A stretch of DNA of 59,528 nt from a virus. Below the pieces are notes generated by a model. The model was given only the letters and a program-made list of their open reading frames with translations. It was not told the origin of the DNA and searched no databases. The DNA is taken from positions 1-59,528 of the IMG/VR virus record IMGVR_UViG_3300025151_000039, one strand, 5' to 3'. Below are positions 4,690 through 43,931 of this stretch, piece by piece. Each line of letters begins with the position of its first letter. The stretch's first letter is position 1. The translations under genes were made by a program, and so were the position numbers.

Positions 4690-5103
4690 TTATCTTTTTA
4701 TATAGAGATCTTCCGGGCTAATCTTTGGAAGAGTTTTTTGATGATAAAGCATTGCTTCTTTATTTTGCTTTAAATAGTTTGGATTATTAGGAAAATGTGT
4801 TGCTCTATAATTTTCAACAGTTTTTTCCATATTTACAGCAGAATCATCATTTCTTTTCATATTATATAATTTTAAGAATAAATCGTGAGCAATCTTAGTA
4901 TGCTTACCATACTGCCCATCAGCGCTTATAACGTTAATATGAGCACCACCATGTTTATTTTGCTCAGTAGCAAACTCTCCTAATAACTCTTGCAGTTTTA
5001 AAACACTTTCAGGGTCGTCAGTATTTAAAGTCCTTGACGCTGATGCTACATCACTCATCAATCTAATTTTGTCTCTAGTCATCATCCATCTACCTTCACT
5101 CAT
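4690..5103 (-). CDS. Hypothetical protein with a possible peptidoglycan-binding-like fold
   Basis: A 137-residue protein placed between small and large terminase, overlapping the small terminase gene by four bases (ATGA), so the two are probably translated together. Residues about 34-80 follow the spacing of a peptidoglycan-binding type 1 repeat: VLKLQELLGEF, then ADGQYGKHTKIAHDLFLKLY. That would be strange between terminase genes, so the match may be chance or a reuse of the fold. There is no signal peptide and no cysteine. Function unknown; position suggests packaging. Confidence 0.6.
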   Translation of the reverse strand: MSEGRWMMTRDKIRLMSDVASASRTLNTDDPESVLKLQELLGEFATEQNKHGGAHINVISADGQYGKHTKIAHDLFLKLYNMKRNDDSAVNMEKTVENYRATHFPNNPNYLKQNKEAMLYHQKTLPKISPEDLYIKR

Positions 5104-5831
5104 TCTTCTAACTCCATAATTTTTTGTACAGCGTCTATACTTTCAGGTTTAAAGCCTTGGAAACCCACCATGGCTACACCAGATTGTTTAGTGCCTTTGT
5201 CTTCAATTTCTAATATATCTACTAGTTTTAAGAAGGCTTTTAAGCGCTCGCCGTCTTGACGTGCTGTTAAAGCTATGTCTCGTATACCTCTTAATACAAA
5301 GTCTTCATTGATACCAAGTTCTTTAAGTACTGGTTTTATCTCTTCTTTCACAGATTTCTTAATCCTTTCTGTCTTAAGTAAAAGCATTGCTTTCTTCTCT
5401 GCATATTTAGGATTATCAGTCTTATATGCATTCATGTAAGCCTTCACTGGATCTACTCCTTGAGCTATATATAAAGAAAATAACTCTTCTCTGCCATTAG
5501 TCTTTTCTCTATCAAATAACTGTTTTGAAGAAGTCTTAGCACCTCCAAAGCTATAAATATTGTGTCGCTTCTCTGTATCCATCTTGTTGGAATCTACCAC
5601 CATAAATGTTCCTGTACAGGTACCTACATATTCTCTTGCATGCCTCTTATGTTTCCTATGCGGTTTCATTTTGTTGCGACGTAAAATCTGTATATAACAG
5701 CCATCATCTGCTATGACCCAGTCTCCTATCTGACCTTCTCTCCAGTTAGCTTTGTAAATAAAGTTATCCGGTAGTTCGTCAGAGCTATCATATACTATGT
5801 GTTCTGTACCCTTGATACTGTATGTTCTCAT
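5100..5831 (-). CDS. Terminase small subunit-like protein
   Basis: A 243-residue protein, the first gene of the late arm. The C-terminal half, from about residue 105, reads like a small terminase: a helical segment with YIAQGVDPVKAYMNAYK (helix-turn-helix type), repeated lysine-rich helices, then IALTARQDGERLKAFLKLVDIL, which matches the helical part of the family that mediates oligomerisation. The N-terminal 100 residues are basic, with HRKHKRHAR, and have no family I recognise. It would bind the packaging site on the DNA and hand it to the large subunit, encoded one gene later. The start is the ATG at 5831; the 425-base leader upstream holds regulatory structure. Confidence 0.7.
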   Translation of the reverse strand: MRTYSIKGTEHIVYDSSDELPDNFIYKANWREGQIGDWVIADDGCYIQILRRNKMKPHRKHKRHAREYVGTCTGTFMVVDSNKMDTEKRHNIYSFGGAKTSSKQLFDREKTNGREELFSLYIAQGVDPVKAYMNAYKTDNPKYAEKKAMLLLKTERIKKSVKEEIKPVLKELGINEDFVLRGIRDIALTARQDGERLKAFLKLVDILEIEDKGTKQSGVAMVGFQGFKPESIDAVQKIMELEE

Positions 5832-5946: not shown

Positions 5947-6174
5947 GCTTACGATCCTAGACTTTACTACGATTCAGAGAAGTTTGGTCAGGTAGATTAC
6001 CCCTCTCTGACGCCCTGCGAGCCCTTGGTATTGGCTGGTCAACTATTAACTGACAAGGCTGTTGTGGAGATTTCCAACGCGGATAACTTACATAAATATA
6101 TATTCCAAAAGCAAGGTTTCAAAAATTGCCGGATTTTAATACGTGGTCTTATTTCATTTGTATACCCCCTATAA
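5947..6174 (+). pseudogene. Start-less 75-codon open frame, possible gene remnant
   Basis: After a TAG at 5944-5946 the plus strand stays open for 75 codons to the TAA at 6172-6174. It has protein-like composition (for example GQVDYPSLTPCEPLVL and KAVVEISNADNLHKYIF) and higher GC than neighbouring genes. It has no ATG and no ribosome site; the first possible starts are TTG codons about a third of the way in. It could be a decayed gene fragment, a captured piece of host DNA, or chance openness in a structured leader. It ends inside the palindrome at 6165-6179. Confidence 0.3.
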
Positions 6175-6179
6175 GGGGG
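6165..6179. promoter_or_regulatory. Tight GC palindrome with a 3-base loop
   Basis: CCCCCT and AGGGGG are perfect complements around the three bases ATA. It is the most GC-dense point in an AT-rich leader and lies about 80 bases before the first early gene. A short stem with a three-base loop is the shape of the hairpin promoters used by the N4 virion RNA polymerase, but the sequence is not that of N4. It could instead be an operator. Confidence 0.4.
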
Positions 6180-6256
6180 ATTTCACTAACGTTTTTTCGT
6201 TATTTTTGATTTTGTTTTTTTAGGTTTTTTAGTCTAATTAAATAGGAGATAAATAG

Positions 6257-6565
6257 ATGAGCAAGTTTTACGGTGAGTTGAATGACAATAAAGCTGTGAA
6301 TGTAGATAATATTACGATTAGTCCTGCGCAAGCAAGACATAATATTAATGTAATGCTATTAAGATCACAGAAAGAATTGTCTGTTCAAGATCATATAAGA
6401 TTTACTAATGCTATCAAAGTTGAGCAAGATCCTCAAGATATGAAAGCAATGGAAGCATCATACGCAGCTGATGAGCGTAGAAAAATTGTTAAAGATATGA
6501 TTGCAAAAGGTAAATCTGAAAAAGAGATCAAAAGAGCTCTTAGAATTTATGATAATTGTGTTTAA
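6257..6565 (+). CDS. Hypothetical early protein, 102 residues
   Basis: First gene of the early arm, with a clear AGGAG ribosome site about ten bases before the ATG. It is a small, mostly helical, charged protein; the C-terminal half (DERRKIVKDMIAKGKSEKEIKRALRIYD) looks like two amphipathic helices and could bind nucleic acid. No cysteine except near the end, no membrane segment, no recognised family. Being first behind the putative early promoter, it may be a host-takeover protein, but nothing in the sequence shows this. A strong AGAGAG/CTCTCT hairpin follows 20 bases after the stop. Confidence 0.75.
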   Translation: MSKFYGELNDNKAVNVDNITISPAQARHNINVMLLRSQKELSVQDHIRFTNAIKVEQDPQDMKAMEASYAADERRKIVKDMIAKGKSEKEIKRALRIYDNCV

Positions 6566-6583
6566 AAAGTAAGTCATGACCCT

Positions 6584-6627
6584 GTAGTGATTAAAAGAGA
6601 GAGTAATCGAAGCTCTCTCTTCACTAC
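6584..6627 (+). other. Strong AGAGAGAG/CTCTCTCT hairpin, copy 1
   Basis: GTAGTG pairs with CACTAC and, inside it, AAGAGAGAG (6595-6603) pairs with CTCTCTCTT (6613-6621) around a nine-base loop. There is no T-run after it, so it is not a classical terminator. Two more hairpins with the same purine/pyrimidine arms stand at 7654-7688 and 18599-18652, always between genes and structured RNAs, suggesting an RNA-processing or phage-specific termination signal. Confidence 0.6.
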
Positions 6628-9716: not shown

Positions 9717-9878
9717 ATGAGAACTGATTTTTATAATATAAGATCAAAATTACCATCTGAGTTTCATGTTAGATGTGAGACTGTAAAGTGTCCTAATTAT
9801 TACAATACTAAGTATAAAAATGCTAATGGCTATTGTAAACCTTGTAATGATAAAAGAAAAGAGAAAGGAAAGGCATAA
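9717..9878 (+). CDS. Small zinc-finger protein, 53 residues
   Basis: ATG at 9717 after an AGGAG site. Four cysteines with zinc-ribbon spacing: RCETVKC (C20, C25) and YCKPC (C40, C43), followed by a lysine-rich tail. Its TAA overlaps the ATG of the next zinc-finger gene (TAATG), so both are made together. A nucleic-acid-binding role is likely. Confidence 0.6.
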   Translation: MRTDFYNIRSKLPSEFHVRCETVKCPNYYNTKYKNANGYCKPCNDKRKEKGKA

Positions 9879-10297
9879 TGGCTCAAGTTGGACCAGGTTT
9901 ATGTATTAAATGCAAGGTAAAACCTAGACCAAAAAGATCTGATAGGAAGAATGCTTGGAGATCTATATGCTGGGGTTGTGCAGAGAAAACAAGGCCTAAT
10001 AGAAAAAAAGTAACAACAAAACAAAGATTTCCTAAAATTCATAAAAGACCATTTAGTCTTATTTGTGATATTTGCAATATTAAACCAAAAATTAAAAGAA
10101 CTGATAGAGAAAATTCCTACAGAATTTATTGCAGTAGTTGTGCTGCAAAAGTGTATTACACAAACTTAGATAAAAATTCTGATGTTTATATATCTAGACT
10201 TATAAAATCAAATGGATATACAGGTGAAATAACTAAAGAATTAATAGAAACAAAGAGACTTTCTTTAATGCTTTTTAGAGCTTTAAAAAAAGTTTAA
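9878..10297 (+). CDS. Tandem zinc-finger protein, 139 residues
   Basis: Two copies of one module: LCIKCKVKPRPKRSDRKNAW...ICWGC (residues about 8-38) and LICDICNIKPKIKRTDRENSY...YCSSC (about 61-88). Each has CxxC, a basic loop with a RxDRxN core, then CxxC, so two treble-clef or ribbon zinc sites arose by duplication. No histidines for an HNH nuclease are present. The protein is very basic and probably binds RNA or DNA. It follows the structured RNA directly and may act on it, but this is only suggested by position. Confidence 0.7.
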   Translation: MAQVGPGLCIKCKVKPRPKRSDRKNAWRSICWGCAEKTRPNRKKVTTKQRFPKIHKRPFSLICDICNIKPKIKRTDRENSYRIYCSSCAAKVYYTNLDKNSDVYISRLIKSNGYTGEITKELIETKRLSLMLFRALKKV

Positions 10298-10645: not shown

Positions 10646-10815
10646 GGGGACTACGACTACCACACTTATGCATGGAGTCTATACCTCCTCCATGAACCAA
10701 CAGTAGTTCCCTCCTAATTACTTAGGAAGCGGAAAACGGATAGAATATAAGGCAGGCCCGGCAATTTAACACTGGGTTTTCATTTTCCTCCAGACTTTAG
10801 GGTCTGCCTTATTTA
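10646..10815 (+). ncRNA. Two structured elements in the gap before the JAMM/E1 cassette
   Basis: GGGACTAC (10647-10654) pairs with GTAGTTCCC (10703-10711, one bulge) and encloses CATGGAG/CTCCATG. Then AAGGCAGGCCC (10749-10759) pairs with GGGTCTGCCTT (10800-10810), eleven pairs with one G-U. The second ends 29 bases before the next start and lacks a T-run, so it may be a phage-specific terminator, an attenuator or a small RNA. Confidence 0.5.
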
Positions 10816-10838
10816 ACGATAATTAAACAGGAGACTAA

Positions 10839-12779
10839 ATGGATAATAGTATACCATTCTTTCAATCTCAGGATAATCGTGGAGTTACTCAAAAAGCAGA
10901 AGCTTTATTACCAGATAATTTAGCTAGTTTTAGAGAAGTGACACTTTCTGATATTGAAAAGCAAGAGTTTAAATGTAAAGCTATTGCAACAATATTAAAT
11001 TACTTTCTAGGTTGGTATTTAAATGAAACTGATCTTCAAAGTAAACTGGGTCAATGTGAGACTCAAAGGGAAATTGAGGAAATATCTTCTATAAGACCTA
11101 TAAAATATACTGATACATTCAGAATGGCTCCTGGTGAAGCAAAGAGAGTGGCTGAAAGATTACAGTATATTCCATTAGTGTGGAGAGAAGATAGACTTGC
11201 TTATTATTATAATTACAGAGGTAGTAGAAATGTTTTACCTACTTCTAAATTGATCAAAAAGATCGACAGAAACCCTGCTGTCATAATTAATAAGTATAAA
11301 GTCAGGGGTAGTAGGAGCAATTATTACAATTCTACAAGAATGTTAGAAATTGCTAGTAATTTTTGGGATCCTGATTTTAATAATCAATGGGAACGATTGT
11401 TAGATCATCATCATAGAAATAACTATCCTGCAAGAGGTGTAGATAGAGATTATGAAGATTTAAGGTTAGAATATTTAATTAGATTTATTAGTCCAGGTAC
11501 TGTAGACTGGAATAATTATGATGGAGAGACTATCCAAAGTTCATACTATCAAAAAACTTCATTTGCTGCAGATTTATTCAACTATCTTAAAGATTCTTTA
11601 ACTATAAGAAGAAACACTCCTGAAATAGACTATTCTGACGAAGAAGACTATACAGAATTGAGAGAATTTCTTATAGAAAGATCTGAAGCTATGAATAAAG
11701 CCAATACTTTACTTAATGGAAAAGTTGAAATTACTGATGCTAGATTAATTAAAACAGCTCGTATGCTTAATATAGTATATAGAACTAAGTTAATTGAACC
11801 AAGTGTTATAATTAGACATCCTAGTGGTAATACTGATTACCCCGATTATGAACGTAAAGTAAAAGATGCTCATGGTGTAATTCATGATTTTATAGTTGGA
11901 ACTAGAGTGGGCATAGCTAAAACTTCAAATGGTTGGAGAGTTAGTAATATAAACATAGCTGGATACTCAACATCTACTCATCACAGGCCTGTATTATATA
12001 ATACTCACAATGTATTATCTAGGACTTCTAACAGCTTAAGACAAGTATTTGATGGAACTTCAGATTGTGTAGACTCTTTTGCAAATAATAATTGCTTTAG
12101 TGATCATGAGCCTACAATTAGAAGAAATACCAAAAAGCATGACTATCTTAGTCAAGGTTTGAATTTGCTAAGTTGGTATCAGATATATGTACCAGGAAGA
12201 ACTAATCCTTATGCTCAAACTAGAGATATATTCTTTGGTATTGGCAGAGATATTCCAGAATGGTATAAATCTCTTCATGACAGTGATACTAATTCTTGTA
12301 GATCTTTAATTAGAAGAAATTATGCTCATACTGTGGAGGGAAATCCAGCCCCTATATCTGAAATTGATGGTGAGATTTTAAAGAATATCAGCATTAATCA
12401 TTGCAACAATTGCTTTCATAGAAGCAGTGGAGCTGGTTGTGATGTGTTTGGCAGCATAGTTAGTAATAACTGGGGTGGAATCAATGAATATCAAAGAGTT
12501 ATTAGATCTTTAGATTCTGCAGAAGTTTGTGAACCAACTCCGGCAGCTATAGAAACTGTAGTTGAAGAAGTTTTAGGTTGTGAACACGGCAACTCTGGTC
12601 CTTCTAATTGTTTAGATTGCGATGAAGCTATAACAAATGGACTTACAGCTGCAGCGGAACCTGTATGTGAATCTATCACATTGGAAGAATCTATAGCTCA
12701 AAGAGTTGAGGAAGAAGAGGAAGCAGAACAGAGACGAATGATGGAACTAATGCAAGCCTGGAGTCAGGCAGAAAGGTAA
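10839..12779 (+). CDS. Unknown cysteine-rich protein, first gene of the JAMM/E1/Ubl cassette
   Basis: A 646-residue protein I cannot assign. It starts behind AGGAG and ends three bases before the JAMM gene. Residues 1-300 are helical and rich in Y, R and N (for example YIPLVWREDRLAYYYNYRG at 110-128). Residues about 320-420 look like a mixed fold with HH at 381-382 and cysteines at 410 and 419. The C-terminal part holds cysteine groups: HCNNC (522-525) with C534, and CEHGNSGPSNCLDC (581-594), which would suit one or two zinc sites. It ends in a strongly acidic coiled coil. From its place in the cassette it could be the target-recognition or ligase-like part, but no E2 or RING signature is clear. 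Confidence 0.6.
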   Translation: MDNSIPFFQSQDNRGVTQKAEALLPDNLASFREVTLSDIEKQEFKCKAIATILNYFLGWYLNETDLQSKLGQCETQREIEEISSIRPIKYTDTFRMAPGEAKRVAERLQYIPLVWREDRLAYYYNYRGSRNVLPTSKLIKKIDRNPAVIINKYKVRGSRSNYYNSTRMLEIASNFWDPDFNNQWERLLDHHHRNNYPARGVDRDYEDLRLEYLIRFISPGTVDWNNYDGETIQSSYYQKTSFAADLFNYLKDSLTIRRNTPEIDYSDEEDYTELREFLIERSEAMNKANTLLNGKVEITDARLIKTARMLNIVYRTKLIEPSVIIRHPSGNTDYPDYERKVKDAHGVIHDFIVGTRVGIAKTSNGWRVSNINIAGYSTSTHHRPVLYNTHNVLSRTSNSLRQVFDGTSDCVDSFANNNCFSDHEPTIRRNTKKHDYLSQGLNLLSWYQIYVPGRTNPYAQTRDIFFGIGRDIPEWYKSLHDSDTNSCRSLIRRNYAHTVEGNPAPISEIDGEILKNISINHCNNCFHRSSGAGCDVFGSIVSNNWGGINEYQRVIRSLDSAEVCEPTPAAIETVVEEVLGCEHGNSGPSNCLDCDEAITNGLTAAAEPVCESITLEESIAQRVEEEEEAEQRRMMELMQAWSQAER

Positions 12780-12782
12780 CTT

Positions 12783-13718
12783 ATGGAAAATAATTTCATA
12801 ATATCTCAAAATGATTGGGATACAATTATCGCTTATGCTCAAATGAGCTATGATAAGTGGAAAACTGAGATCGGCGGTATGTGTGTTGCCATTCTCGACA
12901 AAGAAACCAAAACAATGGTTATAAAAGACCCTGTAATAGGCAAGCAGGAAGTGTCTGGTACGCTTTGCACCTTGGATAAAGGATGGCTTGCTGATTATTA
13001 CATGGAAATGGCCATGAAGCATGGTACTGATGTTAGGTTTGTTTGGTGGCATAGTCATCATATGATGGGTGTGCAATGGTCAGGTACTGACACCTCTACA
13101 ATGAAAGAAGGTTCTAGCGGAGATTACTCTATGAGCTTAGTAGTCAATCTAAAGGGTGAACATACTTTCAGAGTTAGTTGGTGGAAACCAATGGCAGGTC
13201 ATATTGATACTAAAGTTAAAATAGCCGGTCCTGAATTTAGTGTAACTAAAGAGATGGAAGACAACTTTAACAATTTAGTGACAAAGGAAACTCGTGCTAT
13301 AGTTAAGACAACTACTTATGGTAACCGGTATAATGGTTATCATGATTGGAGAACTAAGTACAAACAACCTGGAAATTATGGACCTGGTTATGTAGATGCT
13401 GAACTCATGGATAAAACAGAATCTCTTCAAGAGAAATACTGTAACACCATGGAGTCCTTAATGGAAGAAGTATTTACTGATCAATTAAAATGGCCTCAGT
13501 TTATGAAGAGATGGGATAAAATTATAGAAGATGCTGGCGCACATGATATAATTATAGAACCATTTGAAAAGGATGATTATTCAGATATTTTATTAAAGGG
13601 ATTAATTCCAGATGCAACAGACTACTTTGAAAGCCCAGAACCCGGACTCTCTCTTCACAGAGACAGAGGAATCGGTGGATATGGGAATCCGTTACAGAAA
13701 AATCTGTGGGACGTTTGA
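12783..13718 (+). CDS. JAMM/MPN-domain metallopeptidase
   Basis: A 311-residue protein with a complete JAMM zinc site: E29 in EIGG, then HSH (H90, H92) followed by seven residues and S100-x-x-D103, in FVWWHSHHMMGVQWSGTD. The family removes ubiquitin or ubiquitin-like proteins, or trims their C-termini, by cutting isopeptide or peptide bonds; some bacterial members process sulfur-carrier proteins. Residues about 150-311 form an extra domain of unknown kind. The gene overlaps the E1-like gene by 38 bases, and a ubiquitin-like gene follows that, so a peptidase acting on that small protein is the natural reading. It is far from the tail genes, unlike the lambda K-type tail JAMM proteins. Confidence 0.9.
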   Translation: MENNFIISQNDWDTIIAYAQMSYDKWKTEIGGMCVAILDKETKTMVIKDPVIGKQEVSGTLCTLDKGWLADYYMEMAMKHGTDVRFVWWHSHHMMGVQWSGTDTSTMKEGSSGDYSMSLVVNLKGEHTFRVSWWKPMAGHIDTKVKIAGPEFSVTKEMEDNFNNLVTKETRAIVKTTTYGNRYNGYHDWRTKYKQPGNYGPGYVDAELMDKTESLQEKYCNTMESLMEEVFTDQLKWPQFMKRWDKIIEDAGAHDIIIEPFEKDDYSDILLKGLIPDATDYFESPEPGLSLHRDRGIGGYGNPLQKNLWDV

Positions 13719-14343
13719 TAAACATTTCTTTAGCATATTTGGTTGCGGCGCTATAGGTAGTGCTGCAGCCTTATGCTTGGTTAAACATAATGCTAAGAAT
13801 ATAGCTATTTATGATAATGATACAGTTAGTCCTGAAAATATAGGTATTAGTATGTATGAAGATCGAAATATAGGTGAAACTAAAGTCGATGCTTTGAAAT
13901 TAATACTTGAATCAGGTGGAACTAATAGAGATTTGCAGGTAGAAACTCATAAAGAGTGGCTAGACTATAACTCTTCGTTTAAAAGTCATAAAGGTAGCTT
14001 AAATATTGGCATTTTATGTTTTGATAACATGTTTTCTCGAAAAGAGATAGCAGGTTTGTGTTTTAGAGATAATTTTGATTATATAATAGATGCACGTATG
14101 GGTCGTGAACAGATTCAGTTGTATACTGTTAAAGATATTCAAACTTATGAGAGTTATTGGTATCCAGACTCTCAGGCAAGCGAAGATACTTGCGAAGAAA
14201 AAGGGACGCCAGATGTATCAATGATTTCAGGGTCATTAATAACATCTCAAATTAGAAAGATTATTAACAAGTCTTTCTACCCTGAAGAAATTTGTTTCCA
14301 CATTCCTAGTATGGCACTAGAATGTACAACCATGGTAAAATAA
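13681..14343 (+). CDS. E1/ThiF/MoeB-like adenylating enzyme
   Basis: I take the ATG at 13681, behind AGAGGA, giving 220 residues; an upstream ATG would add 23 residues and lengthen the overlap. The nucleotide-binding loop is FGCGAIGS (residues 20-27). IYDNDTVSPENIG (43-55) matches the D-x-D...N motif of E1 enzymes, K68 lies where the family has its conserved lysine, and FDNMFSRKEI (114-123) matches the D-N...R motif. C171, in SEDTCEEKG, is the best candidate for the thioester cysteine. No CxxC zinc pairs are present. It would adenylate the C-terminal glycine of the ubiquitin-like protein encoded 13 bases downstream. It is short for an E1, without a separate cysteine or ubiquitin-fold domain. 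Confidence 0.85.
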   Translation: MGIRYRKICGTFDKHFFSIFGCGAIGSAAALCLVKHNAKNIAIYDNDTVSPENIGISMYEDRNIGETKVDALKLILESGGTNRDLQVETHKEWLDYNSSFKSHKGSLNIGILCFDNMFSRKEIAGLCFRDNFDYIIDARMGREQIQLYTVKDIQTYESYWYPDSQASEDTCEEKGTPDVSMISGSLITSQIRKIINKSFYPEEICFHIPSMALECTTMVK

Positions 14344-14356
14344 CAAGGAGGGCTAT

Positions 14357-14563
14357 ATGCCTAGTATTCACTTAATGCATAACAGTGATTCATTTAACGC
14401 TACAGATGTTGATGCAACAAATGTAGGTGATCTTAAATCAGAGTTGGGAGTTCCAGCTACATCTCGTGTTAATGTTAACACTTCTGTAGCTCAGGATACA
14501 ACTTCTTTGAATGATGGTGACATTGTTGCTGTTGTTGCGAAAGATAAAAAAGGTGGAAAGTAA
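14357..14563 (+). CDS. Ubiquitin-like beta-grasp protein ending in GGK
   Basis: A 68-residue protein behind AAGGAGGG. Its pattern fits the ThiS/MoaD/ubiquitin fold: strand (SIHLMHN), a helix with VGDLKSELGVP (23-33), strand RVNVNTSVA (37-45), then TTSLNDGDIVAVVAKD (48-63), where the DGD-V-V pattern is typical. The last residues are KKGGK, so a di-glycine sits one residue from the end. A peptidase such as the neighbouring JAMM protein could remove the last lysine and expose GG for the E1-like enzyme. It may be a protein modifier or a sulfur carrier. It is the last gene of the unit, with a strong terminator 16 bases after it. Confidence 0.85.
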   Translation: MPSIHLMHNSDSFNATDVDATNVGDLKSELGVPATSRVNVNTSVAQDTTSLNDGDIVAVVAKDKKGGK

Positions 14564-14577
14564 GTATTAACTTACTG

Positions 14578-14630
14578 TCTCGGGAGGTTTTGGTTTACCT
14601 AGCCACATTTCTCCTCCCGAGGCCTTTTTT
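14578..14630 (+). terminator. Rho-independent terminator after the Ubl cassette
   Basis: CTCGGGAGG (14579-14587) pairs perfectly with CCTCCCGAG (14613-14621), followed by GCC and six T. It closes the four-gene JAMM/E1/Ubl unit. The ribosome site of the next gene begins right after the T-run. Confidence 0.85.
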
Positions 14631-14640
14631 AGGAGTATTT

Positions 14641-15189: not shown

Positions 15190-15882
15190 ATGTCTGGTTT
15201 AATTGAGGTGCGAGAAGCGCCAAGATCAGAAAATCCTGGATTGCTGTTGCTTTATGGAGCAAAAAAAGCCGGGAAAACAACAAAGCTAGGTGAATTAGAT
15301 AACTGTTTAATAATTGACACTGAAAATGGTGCCAATTTCATATCTGGACACATAGCTTCAATAAATTCTTTAGCTGAAACTAGAGAGCTTTGCAATCATT
15401 TGTTTGAACAAAAACAAAAAGGCAAAACATATGACTATATTGCAATAGATACTTTGAATAAAGTTGTTGAATGGATCGAAGAATCTATAGTAATAGAGCA
15501 TAATAATTCAAATAGCGCTAAAATAGAGTATTTTGGTGACCTTGCGTTTGGTAAAGGGCATGGAATGGTTAGAAATAAAGTTGACAAGCTTATCGAAACA
15601 TTCAGAGCACTATCAAATGTAGTGATATTAGTAGGTCATAATAAACTTGCAAGCGCTTTATCGGAAAACTCAACCTTAGTAGATCCTGCATCATTGGACT
15701 TAACTGGAAAGCTTAAGAATATGATAATGGCGAAGTGCGATAGTATTGGTTTTGTTTTTCGTAATGACGATAATGAGCTTCAAATCTCATTTCAGGCTAA
15801 CAATGCTTTAGAGGCGGGCTCACGTAGTCCGCATTTAAAAGGTCAAGTGATACCATTTGACTGGTCTAATATATTTATTTAA
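15190..15882 (+). CDS. Sak4-like RecA-fold ATPase (recombination mediator)
   Basis: A 230-residue P-loop protein: Walker A GAKKAGKTT at residues 23-31, a catalytic-type acid in IIDTENG (41-47), Walker B in YDYIAIDTLN (about 81-90), and VVILVGHNK (about 138-147) as the following strand and sensor. This pattern and size fit the AAA_24/Sak4 group, RecA-derived ATPases that help phage SSB with strand annealing. An SSB-like gene follows 17 bases later, a usual pairing for Sak4. It would work in recombination-dependent replication or repair. Good GGAGG site before the ATG. Confidence 0.78.
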   Translation: MSGLIEVREAPRSENPGLLLLYGAKKAGKTTKLGELDNCLIIDTENGANFISGHIASINSLAETRELCNHLFEQKQKGKTYDYIAIDTLNKVVEWIEESIVIEHNNSNSAKIEYFGDLAFGKGHGMVRNKVDKLIETFRALSNVVILVGHNKLASALSENSTLVDPASLDLTGKLKNMIMAKCDSIGFVFRNDDNELQISFQANNALEAGSRSPHLKGQVIPFDWSNIFI

Positions 15883-15899: not shown

Positions 15900-16484
15900 A
15901 TGTTAGATATACCAACATTCTCTTCAACTAAAAGTGCTGGAGCAGGTCCATTATATGTGAACTCTGCAACAGTTACTGATATTAAAGCAGAGAAAGGTAA
16001 ATTCTCAGAAATAAGTCTAATCGTTAAGGCAGTAATGCATAATGAGCAGCGCTGGGAAAGAACTTTCTACTTTAATGGTGGATGGGAAAGAGATGCTTCA
16101 GGTAAAATTATAGGATGGGGACAAGTGTCAAGAGAAATCTTACCTTTCTTCAAAGCTGTAGGAGTACCTGAAGAAGTGTTACAAAAGTTAGACGAAACTG
16201 GAATTTCTGGAGCATTTGCTGACGCACTGCAAAAAGATTTCTCGTTTATAAGTTATTTAAATGAGGATAATAAATCCAGAACTTCAAAAATCGTTGGTCC
16301 AATGGATGATGATGAAAATCTTATGGAGAAATTCAAAGAAAATCATATGTATTGGACTCAGAAAGCTAGAAAGAAAATGTGGTGGCCGAAAGACTTTAAA
16401 GGGTTTAACGCCGAGGACAAAACTCAGTTTGAAATGAACAATAGCGTTCAACAAGCAGAGACTACCGCTTCAATGCCTTTCTAG
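15900..16484 (+). CDS. Single-stranded DNA-binding protein candidate
   Basis: A 194-residue protein after the Sak4-like ATPase. The N-terminal half suggests an OB fold: LYVNSATVTDIKAEKGKFSE, ISLIVKAVMHNE, then ERTFYFNGGWERD. The C-terminal end is flexible and ends ASMPF, so the hydrophobic tip of SSB proteins is kept although the acidic run before it is weak. It would coat single strands during replication and recruit partners through the tail. No identity to a named family can be shown by eye. A terminator follows at 16502. Confidence 0.6.
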   Translation: MLDIPTFSSTKSAGAGPLYVNSATVTDIKAEKGKFSEISLIVKAVMHNEQRWERTFYFNGGWERDASGKIIGWGQVSREILPFFKAVGVPEEVLQKLDETGISGAFADALQKDFSFISYLNEDNKSRTSKIVGPMDDDENLMEKFKENHMYWTQKARKKMWWPKDFKGFNAEDKTQFEMNNSVQQAETTASMPF

Positions 16485-16551: not shown

Positions 16552-18366
16552 TTGGAAAAAATATTCAAAGAATTTGTTACAGGGCCTGTAAGGCATACTG
16601 CTGACATAAAAGAATTAACAGAAATTGCTAATTATGCTAATACAGCTAATGGCGAATCAATGTACATGAGTGTTTATGATTTCACTGAAGATTATGTTGA
16701 GTATGTTAAAGAGAAAAAATCAGTATCCGGCTATAATGGTTCCGTTTCCATTTCTAAATTATTCTTTGATATAGACATGGGAAAAGGTACAGAAAATATG
16801 TGCCTAACAAAAGCAAGGAATCTAGTAGATGAACTTGTTAATGGATGGGACTTAGATCCTCAATATATCCAACCTTGGTTTAGTGGTAAAGGATTTCATA
16901 TTATAACTCCAGACTTCTTTGGATTCGGAGTTGGAAGTGATGTTCCTGATAAAGTAAAGAACACTCTAACACATTATTTTAAAGATATTGACCCAGTAGT
17001 CTATGATACTATTCGACTCCTTAGAATGGGGAATAGCAAGCATGAGAAAACTGGATTATATAAAGTACCTTTAACAATTAATGAGTTAATGTCTTTTTCT
17101 TATAGTGATATTCAAGATATTGCAAAACAGAAAAGAGATAATCCTAGGTTTTTAGTTGATTGGAGTGGATTTGTTGCAGAAAATGAAGACAAAATCATTG
17201 AAAAGCAAACATTTGAAACTCCTAAACACACTGCAAGTTTTGAAAGAACTGCTACAGACTCAACGTGTTATATGACTTGTTGTCAAAAGATGTATAACCA
17301 GGGGCCTGTTAAAGGTGAAAGGCACACGACTCTTCTCAGATTAGGATCTTGGTTAAAGCGAACCGGTATGACTGAAAGCGTAGCCGTCAAAATATTACTA
17401 GAATGGGGCTCTGCAGAAATAGCTGATCCTAGTACTAGTTTTAATGAGACTGAAATTACCAAAATTATCCGCAATGTTTACGACAAAGGTTATACTTATT
17501 GGTGTAGCGATGAATTGATGTCTAAATACTGCGAAGAGAAGTGTGTTTATTTTCAAAACAGAGAAAATCATGTAGCCTTTAAGAACAATGAACAAGTTTC
17601 TAACGAGTTTATTGATTGGTTTACAGGTTTTAATTATGATGATTCTGTAGATATAGGGACGTTTTGTGGCTCTCATGTACCATGGTGGGCTAATCCTAAA
17701 GAACTTATTGTTGTCTCAGGTGATTCTGGAGCAGGTAAGTCAGCTTTTATGCAAAACTTAATGCTTAAAAGTGGATTAAGAACCGCTTATTATCAGATGG
17801 AGATGGGTGAAGAATTGGATCGCTTAAGATTTAATAAAATGTATTTCCAGATGGACGATGAACAGTTGAAGGATCACTTTAAAGGGATGAGCAGGCAAGA
17901 ACTGATGGATAGCCAGAAAGTTTTCGACGAGATATACTTCAAAAGCGCAGCTCCAAGTATTGATTTTATCAAGAAAGAAGTTGCTATGTTTGAGCCTAAG
18001 ATTATCGTCATTGATACTATGGATATGATTAATAGTAGAGCTCGTAGTAGACTTGACCAACAAAGAGATATTGTTATTAAGTTGAAACGTTTAGCTATCG
18101 AGACTGATAGTATTGTATTTGCAATAGCTCATAAGACTAAATCATCTTCTGATGTTCATTCAGAATTTTATAATAATTCAAATAATGCAATTGCTGGTGA
18201 TGGAGCAATCTTTCAAAAAGCTGATAAAATATTATTCGTAACTACACCTAGAGGACAAGGGTCTCGAGAGAGATCTATTGTGTCATCTAAAAATAGAAAC
18301 GAAGGTCTTCTTAATGAGAAGATGTTATTTATTGGTGAAAAGATGCTTTATAAACCAGCTCAATAG
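16552..18366 (+). CDS. AEP-type primase fused to a RecA/DnaB-type helicase
   Basis: A 604-residue replication protein with a TTG start behind a perfect AGGAGG. Residues 1-180 carry the three motifs of archaeo-eukaryotic primases: LFFDIDMGKG with D73 and D75, FSGKGFH (110-116), and YDTIRLLRMGNSKHEKTG (151-168). A middle region about 235-335 has the PriCT-like helical part and cysteines at 318, 327 and 331 that may bind zinc. From about 380 a RecA-type motor follows: Walker A SGDSGAGKS (389-397), IIVIDTMDMI as Walker B, and IVFAIAHKT. One chain could thus prime and unwind. Since no DNA polymerase gene is visible, the AEP domain may also polymerise, as the NrS-1 phage PrimPol does; this is inference. 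Confidence 0.88.
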   Translation: MEKIFKEFVTGPVRHTADIKELTEIANYANTANGESMYMSVYDFTEDYVEYVKEKKSVSGYNGSVSISKLFFDIDMGKGTENMCLTKARNLVDELVNGWDLDPQYIQPWFSGKGFHIITPDFFGFGVGSDVPDKVKNTLTHYFKDIDPVVYDTIRLLRMGNSKHEKTGLYKVPLTINELMSFSYSDIQDIAKQKRDNPRFLVDWSGFVAENEDKIIEKQTFETPKHTASFERTATDSTCYMTCCQKMYNQGPVKGERHTTLLRLGSWLKRTGMTESVAVKILLEWGSAEIADPSTSFNETEITKIIRNVYDKGYTYWCSDELMSKYCEEKCVYFQNRENHVAFKNNEQVSNEFIDWFTGFNYDDSVDIGTFCGSHVPWWANPKELIVVSGDSGAGKSAFMQNLMLKSGLRTAYYQMEMGEELDRLRFNKMYFQMDDEQLKDHFKGMSRQELMDSQKVFDEIYFKSAAPSIDFIKKEVAMFEPKIIVIDTMDMINSRARSRLDQQRDIVIKLKRLAIETDSIVFAIAHKTKSSSDVHSEFYNNSNNAIAGDGAIFQKADKILFVTTPRGQGSRERSIVSSKNRNEGLLNEKMLFIGEKMLYKPAQ

Positions 18367-24623: not shown

Positions 24624-27600
24624 TTATTTTGTACAAGATTTAGATATTTTTCTATAAAACTCAGCGCCATCTCTAAGGATTTCTTTCCTTTTCTTAAAGC
24701 CTAATTTACGACTTCTACCCATAAACTCATTCTCAACAATTTGATCATTTTTAAGCTTTTTAGACCTGTTGTTAACTATAATATCACTAACACCCTCTGG
24801 ACCTCTTTGCGAAGCTCTAATGTCTTCAGCATATCTATAGGCATCCGTAGGAGATAGGTATCTTTCACCATTAATAAATTCGTTAATAGCTCTTATCTGA
24901 TGATCAGCTCCAAGGCCAGTCTTAACATCTCTATTTAATGATGCATTTTTAAGTCTATTCATTAGTCGATTTTTAGGATTATAAGAGAAGTCCATATTCA
25001 TTAAAGGAAGTCTATCATAACTATTATTCATATATGCACGACTCTGCATAGAAATAACCTTTCTTAATACATCTCCAAACATCATTGCCGTATCATGGTG
25101 TAGCTTAGTAAAATTGGTTTTATTACTAGCTTCATTCAAGTAGGTCATAACCGCTTTAGAGATCCCTGGGACTTCATAATAAGCGGCATCATAAGCATCG
25201 TAACCATCATGTATCTTATATTGAGCAACAACCTTTCTATTTATCTCAGGAGAAAGCATTCGATATACAAGCGCTTCTACTGCTAAAGGATCTGTAGGGC
25301 TAATACTTAGACCGTGTTTAGTTTGATTTCCACCTGTTAAATATTGATGAACTAAATTCCTTCTAGCAACACTTAACGCCATAGGATCTCCTTTGTGCAC
25401 ATCTGTTAAAGCGCTAAATTCATCTCTAAAAGAATCATAAAGAGGTTTAATTACAGACTCCATCTTGTTTCTATCAAAAACAACGTCTCCGCTTGTTGGC
25501 ATTGTATTAAAGGCTTGGTATTTTGATTTTAATATCCTGTTTTGCTCGGGATGAGTAATTTCAAATCTTCTTCCATTCATTATAGCGATGTCACTTTTTG
25601 CAATAGGAAGCCTATTAGTAGAGCCTTTTCTAATAACCTGCTTGATATTCTTACCCTTACTATCCCATACTACGTAAGTGTTCTTACCAGCATTATACTC
25701 ATTAGCTCCAAAACCCTTATTAAATGTAACTTTATTAATATCTTGCATTTTATCTATTTCAGACCCAAGTACCATCTGTAAGTCAGAGGCAGCTTCATTT
25801 AGTTCATTTAGGGATTTTCTAACACTTTGAAGTTCTGCCTCTCTATCGTACTTAGAATTTGATAAATAGCTTTCTTGCGATTTTAAATATCTTATTTTAT
25901 CATTAAGTTTTGATAGTTCAACAAAAGAGCCTTCTTGTTTGACATATTTATATAAATCTGAAGCTAATGTAGATGAATAATCAGTTTCATTTAATAGCTT
26001 ATTTTCAGCTTGAAGTAGTATTTTAGATATTCCAAACGTATCATTTGCATTTTTTCTGCTATAATTAGAGTTATATATCCTAGCTAATTGATCAGTAGCT
26101 ATGTCAAAAGGATTTCTTGATATTTTAAAATAATCCTGAACCTGCTTAATGCCTGAAGTAAGATCTACAGAAAGATCTGTATCGTCTGTCTTCCCAAGCT
26201 TTGTATTCCAGTTATTCTTAGGATCAAAAGAGTTCTCTAAGTCTAATCTTCCAAAGTAAATATCTTTTAACTTTAAAGCTTTAGATGATACACCATCAGA
26301 AACTTCACCTCTATTATATCTTAAATATTTTGATAACGGAGATATTACTTTAAAATTAATAAAATCTCTAACACTATCTCTATCTCTAATAGAAAGAACT
26401 TTTTGCTCGTTTTTGGTATCAACCATTTCAAATATGCCATTAAAATCTCTACCTGCTTCACTAGACCAAGATCGTCCTTTTCTAGTACCAAAGAATATGT
26501 CACTTATAAACATCTCTATCTGGTCTGCAGATGGCGGTTTTTCATAACTATCAATAAACTCTTTTGTAGCGCCAGATATTTCGCCAACAGCATCTAAATA
26601 AGCATCAACATCTTTCATTCTTAATGTATACTCTTGAGTACCCATCTTAACTCTTCCTAGCTCACCATTCATCCCAATTGCATTTTGGAGATATGTAAAT
26701 ATATTATGAAGCTTAACAAATCTTCCTCTAGTAACCAGCGACTGCTGTTGAACACTTCCCCAGTTCCTTATATCAGCACTGTTCTGAATGTTTGTATCAA
26801 ACCTTTCTAGTAATAAATTTAGATTAGATTGACGAGCTCCATAACCACTTCTAGCCGCTGCCTCAAAAAGCAGGCGAGAAGGCATTGCTCCGTAAGCGCT
26901 TGATTTGTCAAAGTCAAAATCTGCATCTTGTGGAGATATTGCATCTATTATATTCTGACGCCCAATATTACCTACATCAGTATGCTCCTCGACATAATTA
27001 ACCGCTTGATCTTTTAATTCTCTTATAAGTTTTTTGTGAGCATCGCTACCCTCTATATATATGACCTTATCATCACCTCTCCTTTTACCATCTTTGTTGA
27101 TAAACATATCTCGCAATATATAAGAGCCATCTTTTCTGCGTTTAATCTTTTTAGCGAATCTTAATTTACCACCTCTAGCTATTGCCCCTTGCTGCATTGA
27201 CTCTAGCTGTCTTTGAGCTTCTATTGGAATATAACGGTTATTCAGGCCTGGAGACACAATCCAAATATCCAGAGGCTCGCCATCTGCTGATTTTATAGTA
27301 GGATGCTCTCTCATATCTACATGAACATCATATATTTTTTTACCAGAGCTATCACGATACACAGAACCTTTTGTTCTTCCTTTTGGATCAAGAGGGAGTA
27401 CATCTCCTTGAACACCTGCTCCTTTTGTTTTAGAAGGAGGTACTACTTTGTTAATAACAATATCATTTATCTCATTACGAGGCTGTCTATTATTAGCCAT
27501 TCCTATGTTAATCTTGTTTGTAAAACCAAGGTTGTCAATTAAGTTTTGAACTTGATAGTTGGTCAAAGCAACTTCTTCTCCATGCTCTGAAGCTTTGCGA

Positions 27601-30600
27601 ATATCATCTATTTCTTTGGAAATTAAATCGTCTAAAGCTTTATACTCGTCAAGAATATCTTTTCTTACTTTTGCATTATAATCTTTACTGTCTTTGTTCC
27701 CTAATTTTTCCAGATCTTTAGGCTTAGGGTCTCCTTTTTTAGAAGAAGCTAGAGGGTCTCTTAGCGAGCCATTCTCCATTAACTCATATCCGTCTACCAT
27801 TATAGTAAACTTTTTACCCTCTCTACCTTGTCCTAACTCAGGAATAACAATCATATCAGATGAGATTTCAGTATCTTCAAACATCCCTTTAAATTTCTTT
27901 CCAGAAAATATAAAGAATCCACCTGACCCAGGATCAGAACCGTCGTGAATACCAAACCTTGAAAAGTCCATAGACATATGTCTAGAAGAAGGAGAATATG
28001 TACCAAAAAATCTTTGTGAATATTTTTCACTAGTCATTCCATTGATACTTTTATTAGACTCAACCAATCTAATAGGAAGTGATTGCTCTGAAATTTTCCC
28101 ATGTAAATCAGGAGCCATTGGTGCATAATCTGATGAAAATGCTTCACCTGATGCAATCTTGCTTTGACTAAAGAAGTGAGTAAACAGCTTATCTGCAGAC
28201 ATATCACCCATCCAAGAATCCAATATTAAGCCACTAGTTTCCATCACAGCTTCAAGTGGAGAAGAGTTTAAATAATTATCACCTTCTATTCGTTTTAAAT
28301 CTAAAAGTTTTTGAGTTATTCCTGTAAGATTTTCAGGATTAGTATTCATCTGTCTAAGTACAGTTCCGAAAGTATGTAAGGTTTTATCAAGACCTATATG
28401 ATCTCTAACGCCTAAATCGTGAGGAAGATGAACGCCAATATTAGCTCCAAAATTAGCATTATGCTCTCTACTTAAATTGCCTATTGTAGTAGCGTTATAA
28501 GGAACCTCTATTATCATATCTGAGTTAGTAGAGCTATTAATATAATCCCCTATATTTTCTACCATAGTGTTTTTTACATTACCCGGAGTATCAATCATTT
28601 TGGCAAATCCACCGTCTGTTTCACCTGCTTTTCTATGTCTATTGACTTTTGCCCCGGTATTAAATGCTAGAGCATCTGCACCCGCTTCTTTTAACATTAA
28701 GTCTATAATTGGATCGTAGAAAAAAGCTGTTTTATTATAGAACATACTAACAGCACCATCTTGCATTACTTCAGAATATCCAACTTTTGGTTTTATCGCG
28801 CCAATCTTAACACTGCTTATGTTGCCATCACCGTCTAAGTTAAACCACTCTCTTCGTGCACCTATAGTAGATAGGAATAATAAATAATCTTCCTTTGTTA
28901 AATAAGTGGGAGCATCTGTAGCACTTTTAGCAACTTTAGCGTGTCTGTCTTTAACTTGCTTTATTTGCTCTGCTGTTAGATTGTGATCCGCAGCTCTGTC
29001 ATTTAAGAATTTATCTAAAATTCTATTACTATCAAATACAGATCCATCAGACTCATCATTAATAACTAAATACTTTTGCTTTTTCTTTACACCTGCAGCA
29101 TCACCGATTCTATCAAGCTGTGTTGTAATTTCTTTTATCCAAGGATCTGTATTAGTATCAACTTTATTATATACATGCCGTAAAAGACCGTAATAATTAT
29201 CCTCTAATACCTTTCCATTCAAAGAGCCTATTAATTTTCTTCTTTTAACTAGGTTGGCATCTGCTTTTTGAGCTTCTGCTTTTGTATATAAAGGCATTGT
29301 AACTGACTGATATATCATTTGTATTGCATCAGCTAGGTCTGTATTAGACATGTCTTTACTTGTAAACCTAGGGTCAATGTCTTGGCCTAATAAATCCTTT
29401 AATTCTTTTATCTTACCACCTTCAGACAGAGACTCTCTGACGTAATTAACAGCTTTTTCAGTTGGAACTAATAAAGTTACAGACTCATTTAAATAAACTC
29501 TAGTCATCGCTTCTTTTTCTACAACATTCTCAGCTATAGATTTTAGCTCAGCATCAGAAGTACCTTCCAGCATAGCTTGAACCCTGGTTCTTCTAGAGTC
29601 TTTTTGAAGCTCTCCAGACTGCAGCCTAGCATCCATATCTATAGATTCTTGATTACTAGGTAGTATGTCATCTTTCCAAGTTTGAGTGCCATCTTTCAAG
29701 GTTACAGGAGATTTGATTACTTTATCCATTAAATACCAGTCAGATGACCCTATGAGATCAAACATCTTCATAATACCGTGGCCAGCATCAATAACCCTAT
29801 CCTTACTAAACTCTAGATGAGTGCCATGATATGCAAGTTTTTTAACTTCTCTTTTTGTAGATGCATGCATTATCTGTAATACATCTGTTACCAAGTCAGA
29901 AGTAAGAGGTTTTGCATCAGGCATAACTGCGGGACCCATTTCAGGAGAGTATCCTGTAGTAGCTCGCTCTATTAAAATGTCTGCAGTATCGTAGAGAATG
30001 CCTAAAGCACCGGCCTCATCTCCTTGCTTCATATAGCTTTCATAAATATCAGAAGTATTTTTTATAATCGTCTGAACATCTGAAGTAGGCAGGTTGTAGT
30101 TATTAGCAAATTTATCTATCGTTGTTGTAACATCCATTTCATGATGCTTATCTTTCAACTCAGGACGAACTTTGTCTAGCTCTTTCTTAATATTTTCTCT
30201 TAGAAGATGGTAGTTTGTTTCGTTTCCTGCTAAATTATTTTGAATATCTGTTAAGAAATGAGTAGTCAATGCATTATTTTTCCAAGCCTTAGCAAGGGCT
30301 GCATCAAAAGTATCAACACCTTCTTTCGTAGCTTTTTGTATAAACTTATTTATCTGATCAACAAAATCGCTTTTAGTTATTGATGTTAGTTGAGCAATTC
30401 TTTCATAATCTCTCAATATAAATAAATCAGATATATGATTCTTAATATCATCAAGCTCTTTTAATAAAGCTCCAATTTTTTTAACCCCTTCATCCTTTAA
30501 GTTTTGATTTACAAACTCATTGTCTGCTATTAAAGATTTGTTTTCTTTTAAAGAATTTGCAATTTTTCCTCCAAGAGCAGATACATCTTTTATACCTCCC

Positions 30601-43109: not shown

Positions 43110-43931
43110 CTAAATAATTCCTTCAAGTTTTAACGCTCTAGCCATTCTATTAACTCCGATTCCTCCACCAAATCTTGGAAAGAAATCATAGCTTAAAAAT
43201 TTATCAAGTTCTTGCATTACTCTATTTTTACCAAATCTTCTGAAAAGTAACTCTGAATACTCTCCATCAGTTTGATTTAAAAAGTTATATCTCATTACAT
43301 CTTTATCACAACTTCTTTCAGCAGAACCAATAGTCTCTTGTCCATGAAGAATAACATCTACTTTATGAAATATGCCTTTAACTGGATTTTCTTCCATATT
43401 CCAAAAAGGATGTGTTCTCTTTGGAAAGTTTTTAAGAAACAACTTGCTGCTAATTTCTTTATTCATTCTTTCTTCATGCTCTGCTTCAAGTATATCAGTT
43501 TCATATCTATCACACAAGCCATCATAAGTGCAGTGAACTGAGTCTTTTTCAAAGCCTAAAAATTCTAACAATTCTTCTTCAAGCTTTATCATGTCTTTCA
43601 TGTTCCCTTTAGTTTCAAATTCAAACATTGGGAATATCTTTTGATGCCTTCCATCTATAGGGTTAGGCTCGTTTCTATAACTTGTTGATACGCAGAAAAA
43701 ACCATCAACATCAGGATTAGTTAAAAGTTCATGCTCTAGCCACATTTGTCCAGTTTGAGGTAAAGGATAGTCAATACCGTCAAAATTGAACTGTGCTATT
43801 GTCTTGGGATCTTCACAAGCAGCTAGTATGCTTAATCTGCTTTGTGTAGGAACTTCTATAAAACCTTTTGCGTCTTTAAAAAATCTCCTCAATTTCTCTA
43901 CAGTTTTATTGTAATCAAATGTTTCGTACAT
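43110..43931 (-). CDS. Class II aminoacyl-tRNA synthetase catalytic core (Asp/Asn/Lys type) without anticodon domain
   Basis: A 273-residue class IIb core. Motif 1 resembles KGFIEVPT (22-29). Motif 2 is clear: STSYRNEPNPIDGRH (82-96) with R86, E88 and R95-H96, then FPMFEFE (100-106). Motif 3 is RFGGGIGVNRMARAL (253-267) with R262. HKVDVILHGQETIGSAERS (189-207) matches the loop between. The N-terminal OB-fold that reads the anticodon in AspRS, AsnRS and LysRS is absent: the gene begins at motif 1. It could charge a tRNA, make asparagine like archaeal AsnRS-derived synthetases, or attach an amino acid to a protein like EpmA. The odd GUU tRNA downstream is the obvious partner to test. It starts in a TAATG overlap. 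Confidence 0.8.
   Translation of the reverse strand: MYETFDYNKTVEKLRRFFKDAKGFIEVPTQSRLSILAACEDPKTIAQFNFDGIDYPLPQTGQMWLEHELLTNPDVDGFFCVSTSYRNEPNPIDGRHQKIFPMFEFETKGNMKDMIKLEEELLEFLGFEKDSVHCTYDGLCDRYETDILEAEHEERMNKEISSKLFLKNFPKRTHPFWNMEENPVKGIFHKVDVILHGQETIGSAERSCDKDVMRYNFLNQTDGEYSELLFRRFGKNRVMQELDKFLSYDFFPRFGGGIGVNRMARALKLEGII

What the first reader, a model, noticed from the sequence alone, without database searches (positions are those of the whole stretch)
10839..14630. Self-contained JAMM / E1 / ubiquitin-like cassette with an unknown 646-residue partner
Four genes form one unit bounded by hairpins: an unknown cysteine-rich protein, a JAMM peptidase with all zinc ligands (E29, H90, H92, S100, D103), an E1-like enzyme with its nucleotide loop and a candidate cysteine C171, and a beta-grasp protein ending GGK. 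The single residue after GG suggests a precursor that the JAMM enzyme matures before activation. It lies among early genes, away from the tail, so it is not a lambda-type tail-assembly pair. It may tag host or phage proteins or carry sulfur. Prokaryotic E1/Ubl/JAMM sets are known, including in antiviral operons; a phage copy could imitate or counter such systems.
Basis: partly seen in the sequence, partly recalled or inferred. Interest (0 to 1): 0.93.

Follow-up and report, generated by a model that had tools for sequence, protein, structure and literature searches.

The report
Phage-encoded ubiquitin-like conjugation cassette
A large group of uncultured marine phages carries, next to its DNA-replication genes, a compact four-gene kit that looks like a complete ubiquitin-type protein-tagging pathway (tag, activating enzyme, conjugating enzyme and tag remover), a kind of pathway that in bacteria has been described mainly on the host's side as anti-phage defence.

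Summary
In detail: 10839-14563 encodes a 646-aa protein, a JAMM peptidase, a short E1 and a ThiS-like Ubl ending GGK, flanked by hairpins. It is not a one-off: over 300 IMG/VR stretches encode related E1s, and 71 of 112 loci examined hold all four genes. Zinc ligands, E1 nucleotide residues, E1 C171 and the Ubl GG are invariant. The main advance is the 'unknown' 646-aa partner: most likely an E2-like enzyme. C419 is conserved in 72/73 relatives inside an 'HPYI...VCLG' motif; profile comparison links it to cellular 'HPH...PC.G' proteins of the same gene set (E 4e-8), and those to Pfam-verified UBC E2s (E 3e-7), with clean controls. Foldseek did not confirm the fold. Replication/recombination genes follow the cassette in 72/72 loci; sampled by the helicase instead, 35/43 phages have it and 8 lack all of it. 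crAss-like phages carry a syntenic set. The Ubl tail after GG is absent in 18/58, so JAMM maturation cannot be the only role; deconjugation is likelier. The target is unknown. Verdict: a phage-borne, new variant of a known kind (prokaryotic E1/E2/Ubl/JAMM conjugation).

The parts
10839..12779 (+). 646-aa E2-like protein (the 'unknown partner'); N-terminal helical part, E2-like core about residues 267-495, Cys-rich C-terminal region
   Evidence: (AF2 model pLDDT 76)
12093..12095 (+). codon of C419, candidate E2 catalytic cysteine, in the loop before a helix at 421-432
   Evidence: conserved 72/73 in the family; invariant in A5; aligned by hhalign to the cellular HPH..PC.G cysteine
12400..12630 (+). 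Cys-rich C-terminal part (C525 62/67, C534 59/69 conserved), possible zinc-binding module; several cellular E2-like relatives also have Cys-rich C-termini
   Evidence: zinc binding is inference
12783..13718 (+). JAMM/MPN+ metallopeptidase, 311 aa; E29, H90, H92, S100, D103
13681..14343 (+). minimal E1-like adenylating enzyme, 220 aa; GCGAIG loop, D45/D47, N53, K68, D115, R120, catalytic-cysteine candidate C171
14191..14193 (+). codon of E1 C171, invariant (83/83); similar 'CT.[KR].T' context in cellular relatives
14357..14563 (+). ThiS/ubiquitin-like beta-grasp protein, 68 aa, C-terminal K-K-G-G-K
14552..14557 (+). codons of the Gly-Gly (G66, G67), conserved 58/58, followed by a single Lys codon
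10640..10725 (+). hairpin upstream of the cassette
   Evidence: z -3.83, 0 of 200 shuffles as stable
10745..10822 (+). second upstream hairpin just before the E2-like gene
   Evidence: z -3.69
14565..14635 (+). hairpin plus T-run after the Ubl gene, terminator-like
   Evidence: z -4.00; T-run read from the sequence
15190..15882 (+). neighbouring replication module: Sak4-like ATPase (AAA_24)
15900..16484 (+). neighbouring module: conserved 194-aa protein, SSB-like by its MPF tail and context (inference)
16552..18366 (+). neighbouring module: primase-helicase (DnaB_C domain)

Best explanation
The cassette is a complete phage-encoded ubiquitin-like conjugation pathway. The E1-like protein adenylates the Gly-Gly end of the small Ubl and takes it onto C171 as a thioester; the Ubl passes to C419 of the large E2-like protein, which attaches it to a lysine on a target, perhaps helped by its own Cys-rich C-terminal region; the JAMM peptidase removes the Ubl from targets and, where the Ubl gene encodes residues after GG, trims the precursor. 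The most likely setting is viral DNA replication/recombination: targets would be phage or host replication proteins. Shown here: gene content, conservation of all active-site residues, homology of the families, linkage to the replication module, nearly all-or-none presence. Inferred: every catalytic step, the E2 chemistry, and the targets.
For: (1) Ubl: ThiS-like, GG invariant 58/58. (2) E1: ThiF 8e-17; nucleotide residues and C171 invariant 83/83; best PDB matches by profile include UBA5 and bacterial ThiF-type proteins; a very weak second segment puts C171 over the UBA5 cysteine that is known from the literature to be catalytic (own knowledge). (3) JAMM: all ligands invariant; profile match to an archaeal RPN11-like deubiquitinase. 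(4) E2-like: C419 72/73 in an HP[YF]I...CLG motif followed by W...TNP.N; AF2 secondary structure helix, beta-meander, Cys loop, helices; hhalign phage core vs cellular E2-like core E 3.7e-8, cellular core vs Pfam PF00179 E2s E 2.7e-7 (unselected full alignment 1.6e-6), unrelated and reversed controls >=0.07. (5) Unit: 71/112 loci hold all four genes; sampled independently by the helicase, 32/43 have all four, 3 have three, 8 none. (6) Replication genes directly downstream in 72/72 loci, and primase/UDG/resolvase/exonuclease around the syntenic crAss-like set.
Against: Foldseek found no E2 in the PDB for the window model or for a cellular relative (the latter model is poor, pLDDT 56). No Pfam, NCBIfam or PADLOC E2 model matches. 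Direct phage-to-UBC comparison is weak (E 2e-4, 45%), so E2 homology is transitive. In the window itself the HP motif is degenerate ('STSTHHRP') and lies about 40 residues before C419 because of an insertion. The UBC and cellular core sets were picked with a motif pattern, which favours the motif. Eight of 43 related phages do without the cassette, and the helicase tree needs at least 3 gains or losses, so it is not essential everywhere. No target is known.
Confidence: 0.74

Rival explanations
1. Sulfur-relay system: the Ubl is a ThiS/MoaD-type sulfur carrier, the E1 makes a thiocarboxylate, the JAMM trims the precursor, and the large protein uses the sulfur, for example in nucleotide or tRNA modification.
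For: Ubl matches ThiS and E1 matches ThiF/MoeB models best; small sets of ThiS/MoaD-like, JAB and E1 genes linked to sulfur metabolism are known in bacteria (PMC1779556).
Against: No rhodanese domain or sulfur-metabolism gene in the cassette; an E2-like protein with a near-invariant cysteine co-occurs; the E1 cysteine context is shared with cellular relatives that also have the E2-like gene.
Confidence: 0.12
2. The conjugation system works against the host: it tags bacterial defence, transcription or metabolic proteins, or blocks a host Ubl-based defence such as Bil, Bub or CBASS Cap2/Cap3. (A rival on the target, not on the chemistry.)
For: Host Ubl systems do act in anti-phage defence (PMC10097602, found; Bil reviewed in PMC11354881); a phage counterpart is plausible; some related phages lack the cassette, as expected for an arms-race gene.
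Against: Strict embedding in the replication module in 72/72 loci and a single marine-phage E1 clade fit a housekeeping phage function better; no PADLOC match for the E2-like or Ubl protein; hosts are unknown.
Confidence: 0.25
3. The 646-aa protein is an inactive E2/RWD-like or unrelated scaffold; the E1 passes the Ubl directly to targets (E2-independent), as in SAMP or Urm1 systems.
For: Foldseek finds no E2; the protein is long, divergent and has large insertions.
Against: C419 is the single invariant column of the family alignment, unlike inactive RWD domains that lack the cysteine; profile links to proteins with an active-type E2 motif.
Confidence: 0.15

Closest known systems
Cellular four-gene Ubl/E2-like/JAMM/E1 sets in MAGs and genomes (L112-L173: Planctomycetes, Myxococcales, KSB1, Nitrospinae, a haloarchaeon and others)
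   Same: Homologous E1 and JAMM; mostly the same gene order; E2-like cysteine aligned; most Ubls end GG or GA plus 0-4 residues
   Different: On cellular contigs, sparse (13 of 392 and 13 of 284 genomes); E1s form a separate clade (98/86) from the marine phages (98/98); short HPH-to-Cys spacing; no Pfam name for their E2-like protein
crAss-like phage genes gp79-gp76 (crAss001, DAC15, cr128_1; also Dulem virus 41)
   Same: Order Ubl-like, gp78, JAMM, ThiF in a replication/recombination module; E1 and JAMM match the same profiles (3e-43 or better)
   Different: gp78 to E2-like link is weak (E 0.004-0.05; 'MHSHV...C.G'); Ubl has a long C-terminal domain and no GG (conserved SG instead); annotated only as ThiF/thiamine biosynthesis and metalloprotease
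Iyer, Burroughs and Aravind 2006 operon type 6d (PMC1779556): Ub-like, JAB, E1-like, E2-like and a helical protein
   Same: Separate genes for Ubl, JAB, E1 and E2-like proteins
   Different: 6d E2-like proteins lack the upstream histidine, and the set carries an extra helical gene and a JAB N-terminal domain; ours keeps an HP motif in most members and no Prok-E2 model matches
Bil (BilABCD)
   Same: Four genes: Ubl, E2, JAMM, E1; JAMM processes a precursor
   Different: BilA has two Ubl domains, BilD an inactive plus an active adenylation domain and a Cys domain, BilB a CEHH motif (PMC11354881); here a single-domain Ubl and a 220-aa E1
UBA5 (UFM1 pathway E1)
   Same: Minimal E1 with the active cysteine inside the adenylation domain (own knowledge); among the best PDB profile matches
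   Different: Eukaryotic; partner E2 (UFC1) did not turn up as similar; cysteine overlap is a very weak segment

Membership tests
JAMM/MPN+ metallopeptidase | Glu plus HxH-x(7)-S-x(2)-D zinc site | tested here: met
   E29, H90, H92, S100, D103 present and invariant
JAMM/MPN+ metallopeptidase | Significant similarity to known JAMM enzymes | tested here: met
   Profile vs PDB: RPN11-like 6fjv 1e-5; Pfam Prok-JAB below cut-off
E1/ThiF superfamily | GxGxxG Rossmann loop and ATP-site residues, ThiF domain above cut-off | tested here: met
   61.6 bits vs 28.1 cut-off; residues invariant
Thioester-forming E1 | Catalytic cysteine | tested here: inconclusive
   C171 invariant 83/83, but the overlap with UBA5's cysteine is a -3.3-bit segment
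Beta-grasp ubiquitin-like / ThiS family | ThiS/Ub-like sequence and C-terminal Gly-Gly | tested here: met
   ThiS 2e-4, 0.2 bits under cut-off; GG 58/58; fold itself not predicted here
E2 (UBC) conjugating enzyme | Conserved catalytic cysteine downstream of an HP motif | tested here: met
   C419 72/73; HPYI...VCLG consensus in the family, but a degenerate HP in the window itself
E2 (UBC) conjugating enzyme | Homology to verified E2s | tested here: inconclusive
   Transitive: 3.7e-8 then 2.7e-7; direct 2e-4
E2 (UBC) conjugating enzyme | UBC fold by structure comparison | tested here: not met
   No E2 among the Foldseek PDB matches listed for either model; the second model is low confidence. Hence 'E2-like', not filed as an E2
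Bil | Tandem Ubl BilA and two-domain E1 BilD | tested here: not met
   Single 68-aa Ubl and 220-aa E1; only a generic BilD match 1.5e-5
PRTRC | PRTRC family models over cut-off | tested here: not met
   PRTRC_ThiF 26 bits vs 145 cut-off for the E1; no PRTRC model for the other three window proteins
Lambda-type tail assembly K/I pair | JAB and Ubl genes among tail genes | tested here: not met
   Replication genes adjacent in 72/72 loci
CBASS Cap2/Cap3 | E2-E1 fusion beside a cGAS-like nucleotidyltransferase | tested here: not met
   E1 and E2-like are separate genes; no nucleotidyltransferase among the neighbours scanned

The most novel reading that the evidence does not exclude
A major uncultured marine phage lineage encodes its own complete E1-E2-Ubl-JAMM cascade, built around an E2 family not recognised by current models, and uses reversible Ubl conjugation to control viral DNA replication or recombination proteins, in parallel with ubiquitin/SUMO control of replication in eukaryotes; crAss-like phages carry a distant version of the same system.
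Probability: 0.35. Interest if true: 0.92.

Novelty: new variant of a known kind. Interest (0 to 1): 0.78.

Why it matters
Prokaryotic E1/E2/Ubl/JAMM pathways have been studied as host systems, several of them anti-phage. A complete set held by many phages, placed next to the replication genes and present nearly all-or-none, would show that viruses of bacteria run ubiquitin-like signalling themselves. It makes a direct test possible: four small genes can be expressed together and conjugates looked for. It also adds an apparently unnamed E2-like family shared by phages, bacteria and an archaeon.

Tried and rejected
Lambda K/I tail pair: rejected by gene context. PRTRC: suspected from crAss gene order, but no PRTRC model reaches its cut-off. 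Isolate phages: no JAMM relative in 50,697 phage records; E1 hits were mostly crAss-like phages, plus one huge phage, LR756511, with a JAB-like ORF nearby but no E2-like or Ubl gene noticed. Direct profile search of the PDB with the E2-like families gave only noise. Two AlphaFold jobs and two Foldseek PDB searches did not confirm the E2 fold; the BFVD search found only unnamed viral proteins with good E-values. Prok-E2_B and Prok-E2_D rang in none of the genomes or controls searched, so they could not serve as yardsticks; UQ_con did. crAss gp78 as E2-like stays unproven. Literature searches of the open library found no report of a phage-encoded E1/E2/Ubl/JAMM set; most subscription papers are not held, so this is not proof of absence.

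Full report
Observation. The window is an uncultured virus record of 59,528 bases. The E1 is best started at 13681, overlapping the end of the JAMM gene. Pfam recognises the E1 (ThiF 8e-17) and, just under its cut-off, the Ubl (ThiS 2e-4); the JAMM match is weak (0.03) and the 646-aa protein has none.

Relatives. The JAMM protein has no relative in 50,697 phage records, but IMG/VR holds many: 4 loci with a single-sequence query, 22 with an alignment, and 313 stretches with the E1 alignment. I read 112 sequences (111 loci, some overlapping, plus the window): 71 hold all four genes, and many of the rest are cut by contig ends. Two layouts exist: Ubl-E2like-JAMM-E1 in most, and E2like-JAMM-E1-Ubl in the window and its nearest kin (L001, L032-L035). 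E1s of the marine phages form one clade (98/98), the window sitting with L032 and L033.

Conservation. JAMM E29 77/77, H90 and H92 79/79, S100 and D103 80/80. E1 glycine loop, the D45/D47 pair, N53, K68, D115, R120 and C171: all 83/83 apart from the variable letters of the loop. Ubl GG 58/58. E2-like C419 72/73. The Ubl tail after GG is 0 residues in 18, 1 to 11 in 37, and 31, 119 and 126 in three. JAMM genes accompany both kinds, so trimming cannot be the only job; deconjugation, alone or with trimming, fits better. This is an inference.

The unknown partner. Across the family the 646-aa protein shows 'HPYI ... VCLG ... W...Y....TNP.N'. A scan of cellular genomes with the JAMM profile found nine MAG loci. 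All nine have, upstream of the JAMM gene, a protein with HP[HY][IV], a short spacer and C[LWF]G. More were found in the phyla of two of them: 13 of 392 and 13 of 284 genomes, the starting genomes included. hhalign of the phage and cellular families gives E 2-3e-7 and pairs C419 with the cellular cysteine. To test E2 kinship I used planctomycete proteins found by Pfam UQ_con: cellular core vs these E 2.7e-7, phage core vs cellular core 3.7e-8, phage vs UQ_con directly 2e-4 to 6e-4; reversed or unrelated alignments gave 0.07 or worse. Both core sets were chosen with a motif pattern, which favours the motif; the unselected cellular alignment still gives 1.6e-6. AlphaFold models show helix, beta-meander, cysteine loop, helices, but Foldseek matched no E2. 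I therefore call it E2-like, not a proven E2.

Unit and setting. In 72 of 72 loci with enough sequence, one or more of the Sak4-like/ERF, SSB-like and primase-helicase families follow the E1 within 5 kb. Sampling by the primase-helicase instead, 35 of 43 phages carry the cassette (32 with all four genes, 3 without a detected Ubl) and 8 carry none of it. The helicase tree needs at least three gains or losses. So it behaves as one functional block, old in this lineage but dispensable in some members. crAss-like phages hold a syntenic Ubl-like, gp78, JAMM, ThiF block among primase, UDG, resolvase and exonuclease genes, with E1 and JAMM clearly related and gp78 only weakly.

Mechanism. Best reading: activation of the Ubl by the E1, thioester on C171, transfer to C419, attachment to targets, removal by JAMM. 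The replication setting suggests targets there; anti-host use and sulfur relay remain open rivals.

Known and new. E1/E2/Ubl/JAB operons were predicted in bacteria in 2006, and phage tail JAB/Ubl pairs were described in the same paper (PMC1779556). Bil and Cap2/Cap3 are host systems (PMC11354881; PMC10097602). This set differs in being phage-borne, in its short E1, in an E2-like protein that no Pfam, NCBIfam or PADLOC model recognises, and in its replication context. I found no earlier report in the papers held.

Noticed in passing
window 43110-43931 (-): Phage gene for a class II tRNA-synthetase catalytic core (PF00152, 2e-16, 273 aa); 273 aa leaves little room for a separate tRNA-binding domain. 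Role unclear.
   Followed up: partly
window 24624-33986 (-): Single 3120-aa protein gene on the strand of the portal and terminase genes; possible giant virion or ejection protein.
   Followed up: no
window 45006-46199 (-): Calcineurin-like phosphoesterase with an N-terminal Cys-rich, zinc-finger-like stretch.
   Followed up: partly
window 9878-10297 (+): 139-aa Cys-rich protein with a weak match to the restriction-alleviation protein Lar family (0.003, below cut-off).
   Followed up: no
L100:2698-3321, L104:2450-3064: Ubl genes that run on for 119-126 residues after GG, like ubiquitin fusion precursors.
   Followed up: partly
L147-L173 (genomes G405, G421, G445, G455, G552 and others): Several very similar copies of the cellular Ubl/E2-like/JAMM/E1 set per genome (up to 6 matches), suggesting a mobile or amplified element.
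   Followed up: no
L007:2235-2912, L008:2465-3205, L009:2620-3225: crAss-like Ubl proteins share a conserved KKIKSG-A[ML] stretch after the beta-grasp part, a possible processing point, and a C-terminal EI..MF.FV motif.
   Followed up: partly
L206, L208, L209, L210, L214, L217, L228, L231: Related phages with the same primase-helicase but no trace of the cassette; a useful natural comparison set.
   Followed up: partly
L010:4693-6618 (LR756511, 595-kb phage): ThiF-like gene (5965-6618) with a JAB-like ORF upstream (4693-5169); possible separate E1/JAB pair.
   Followed up: no
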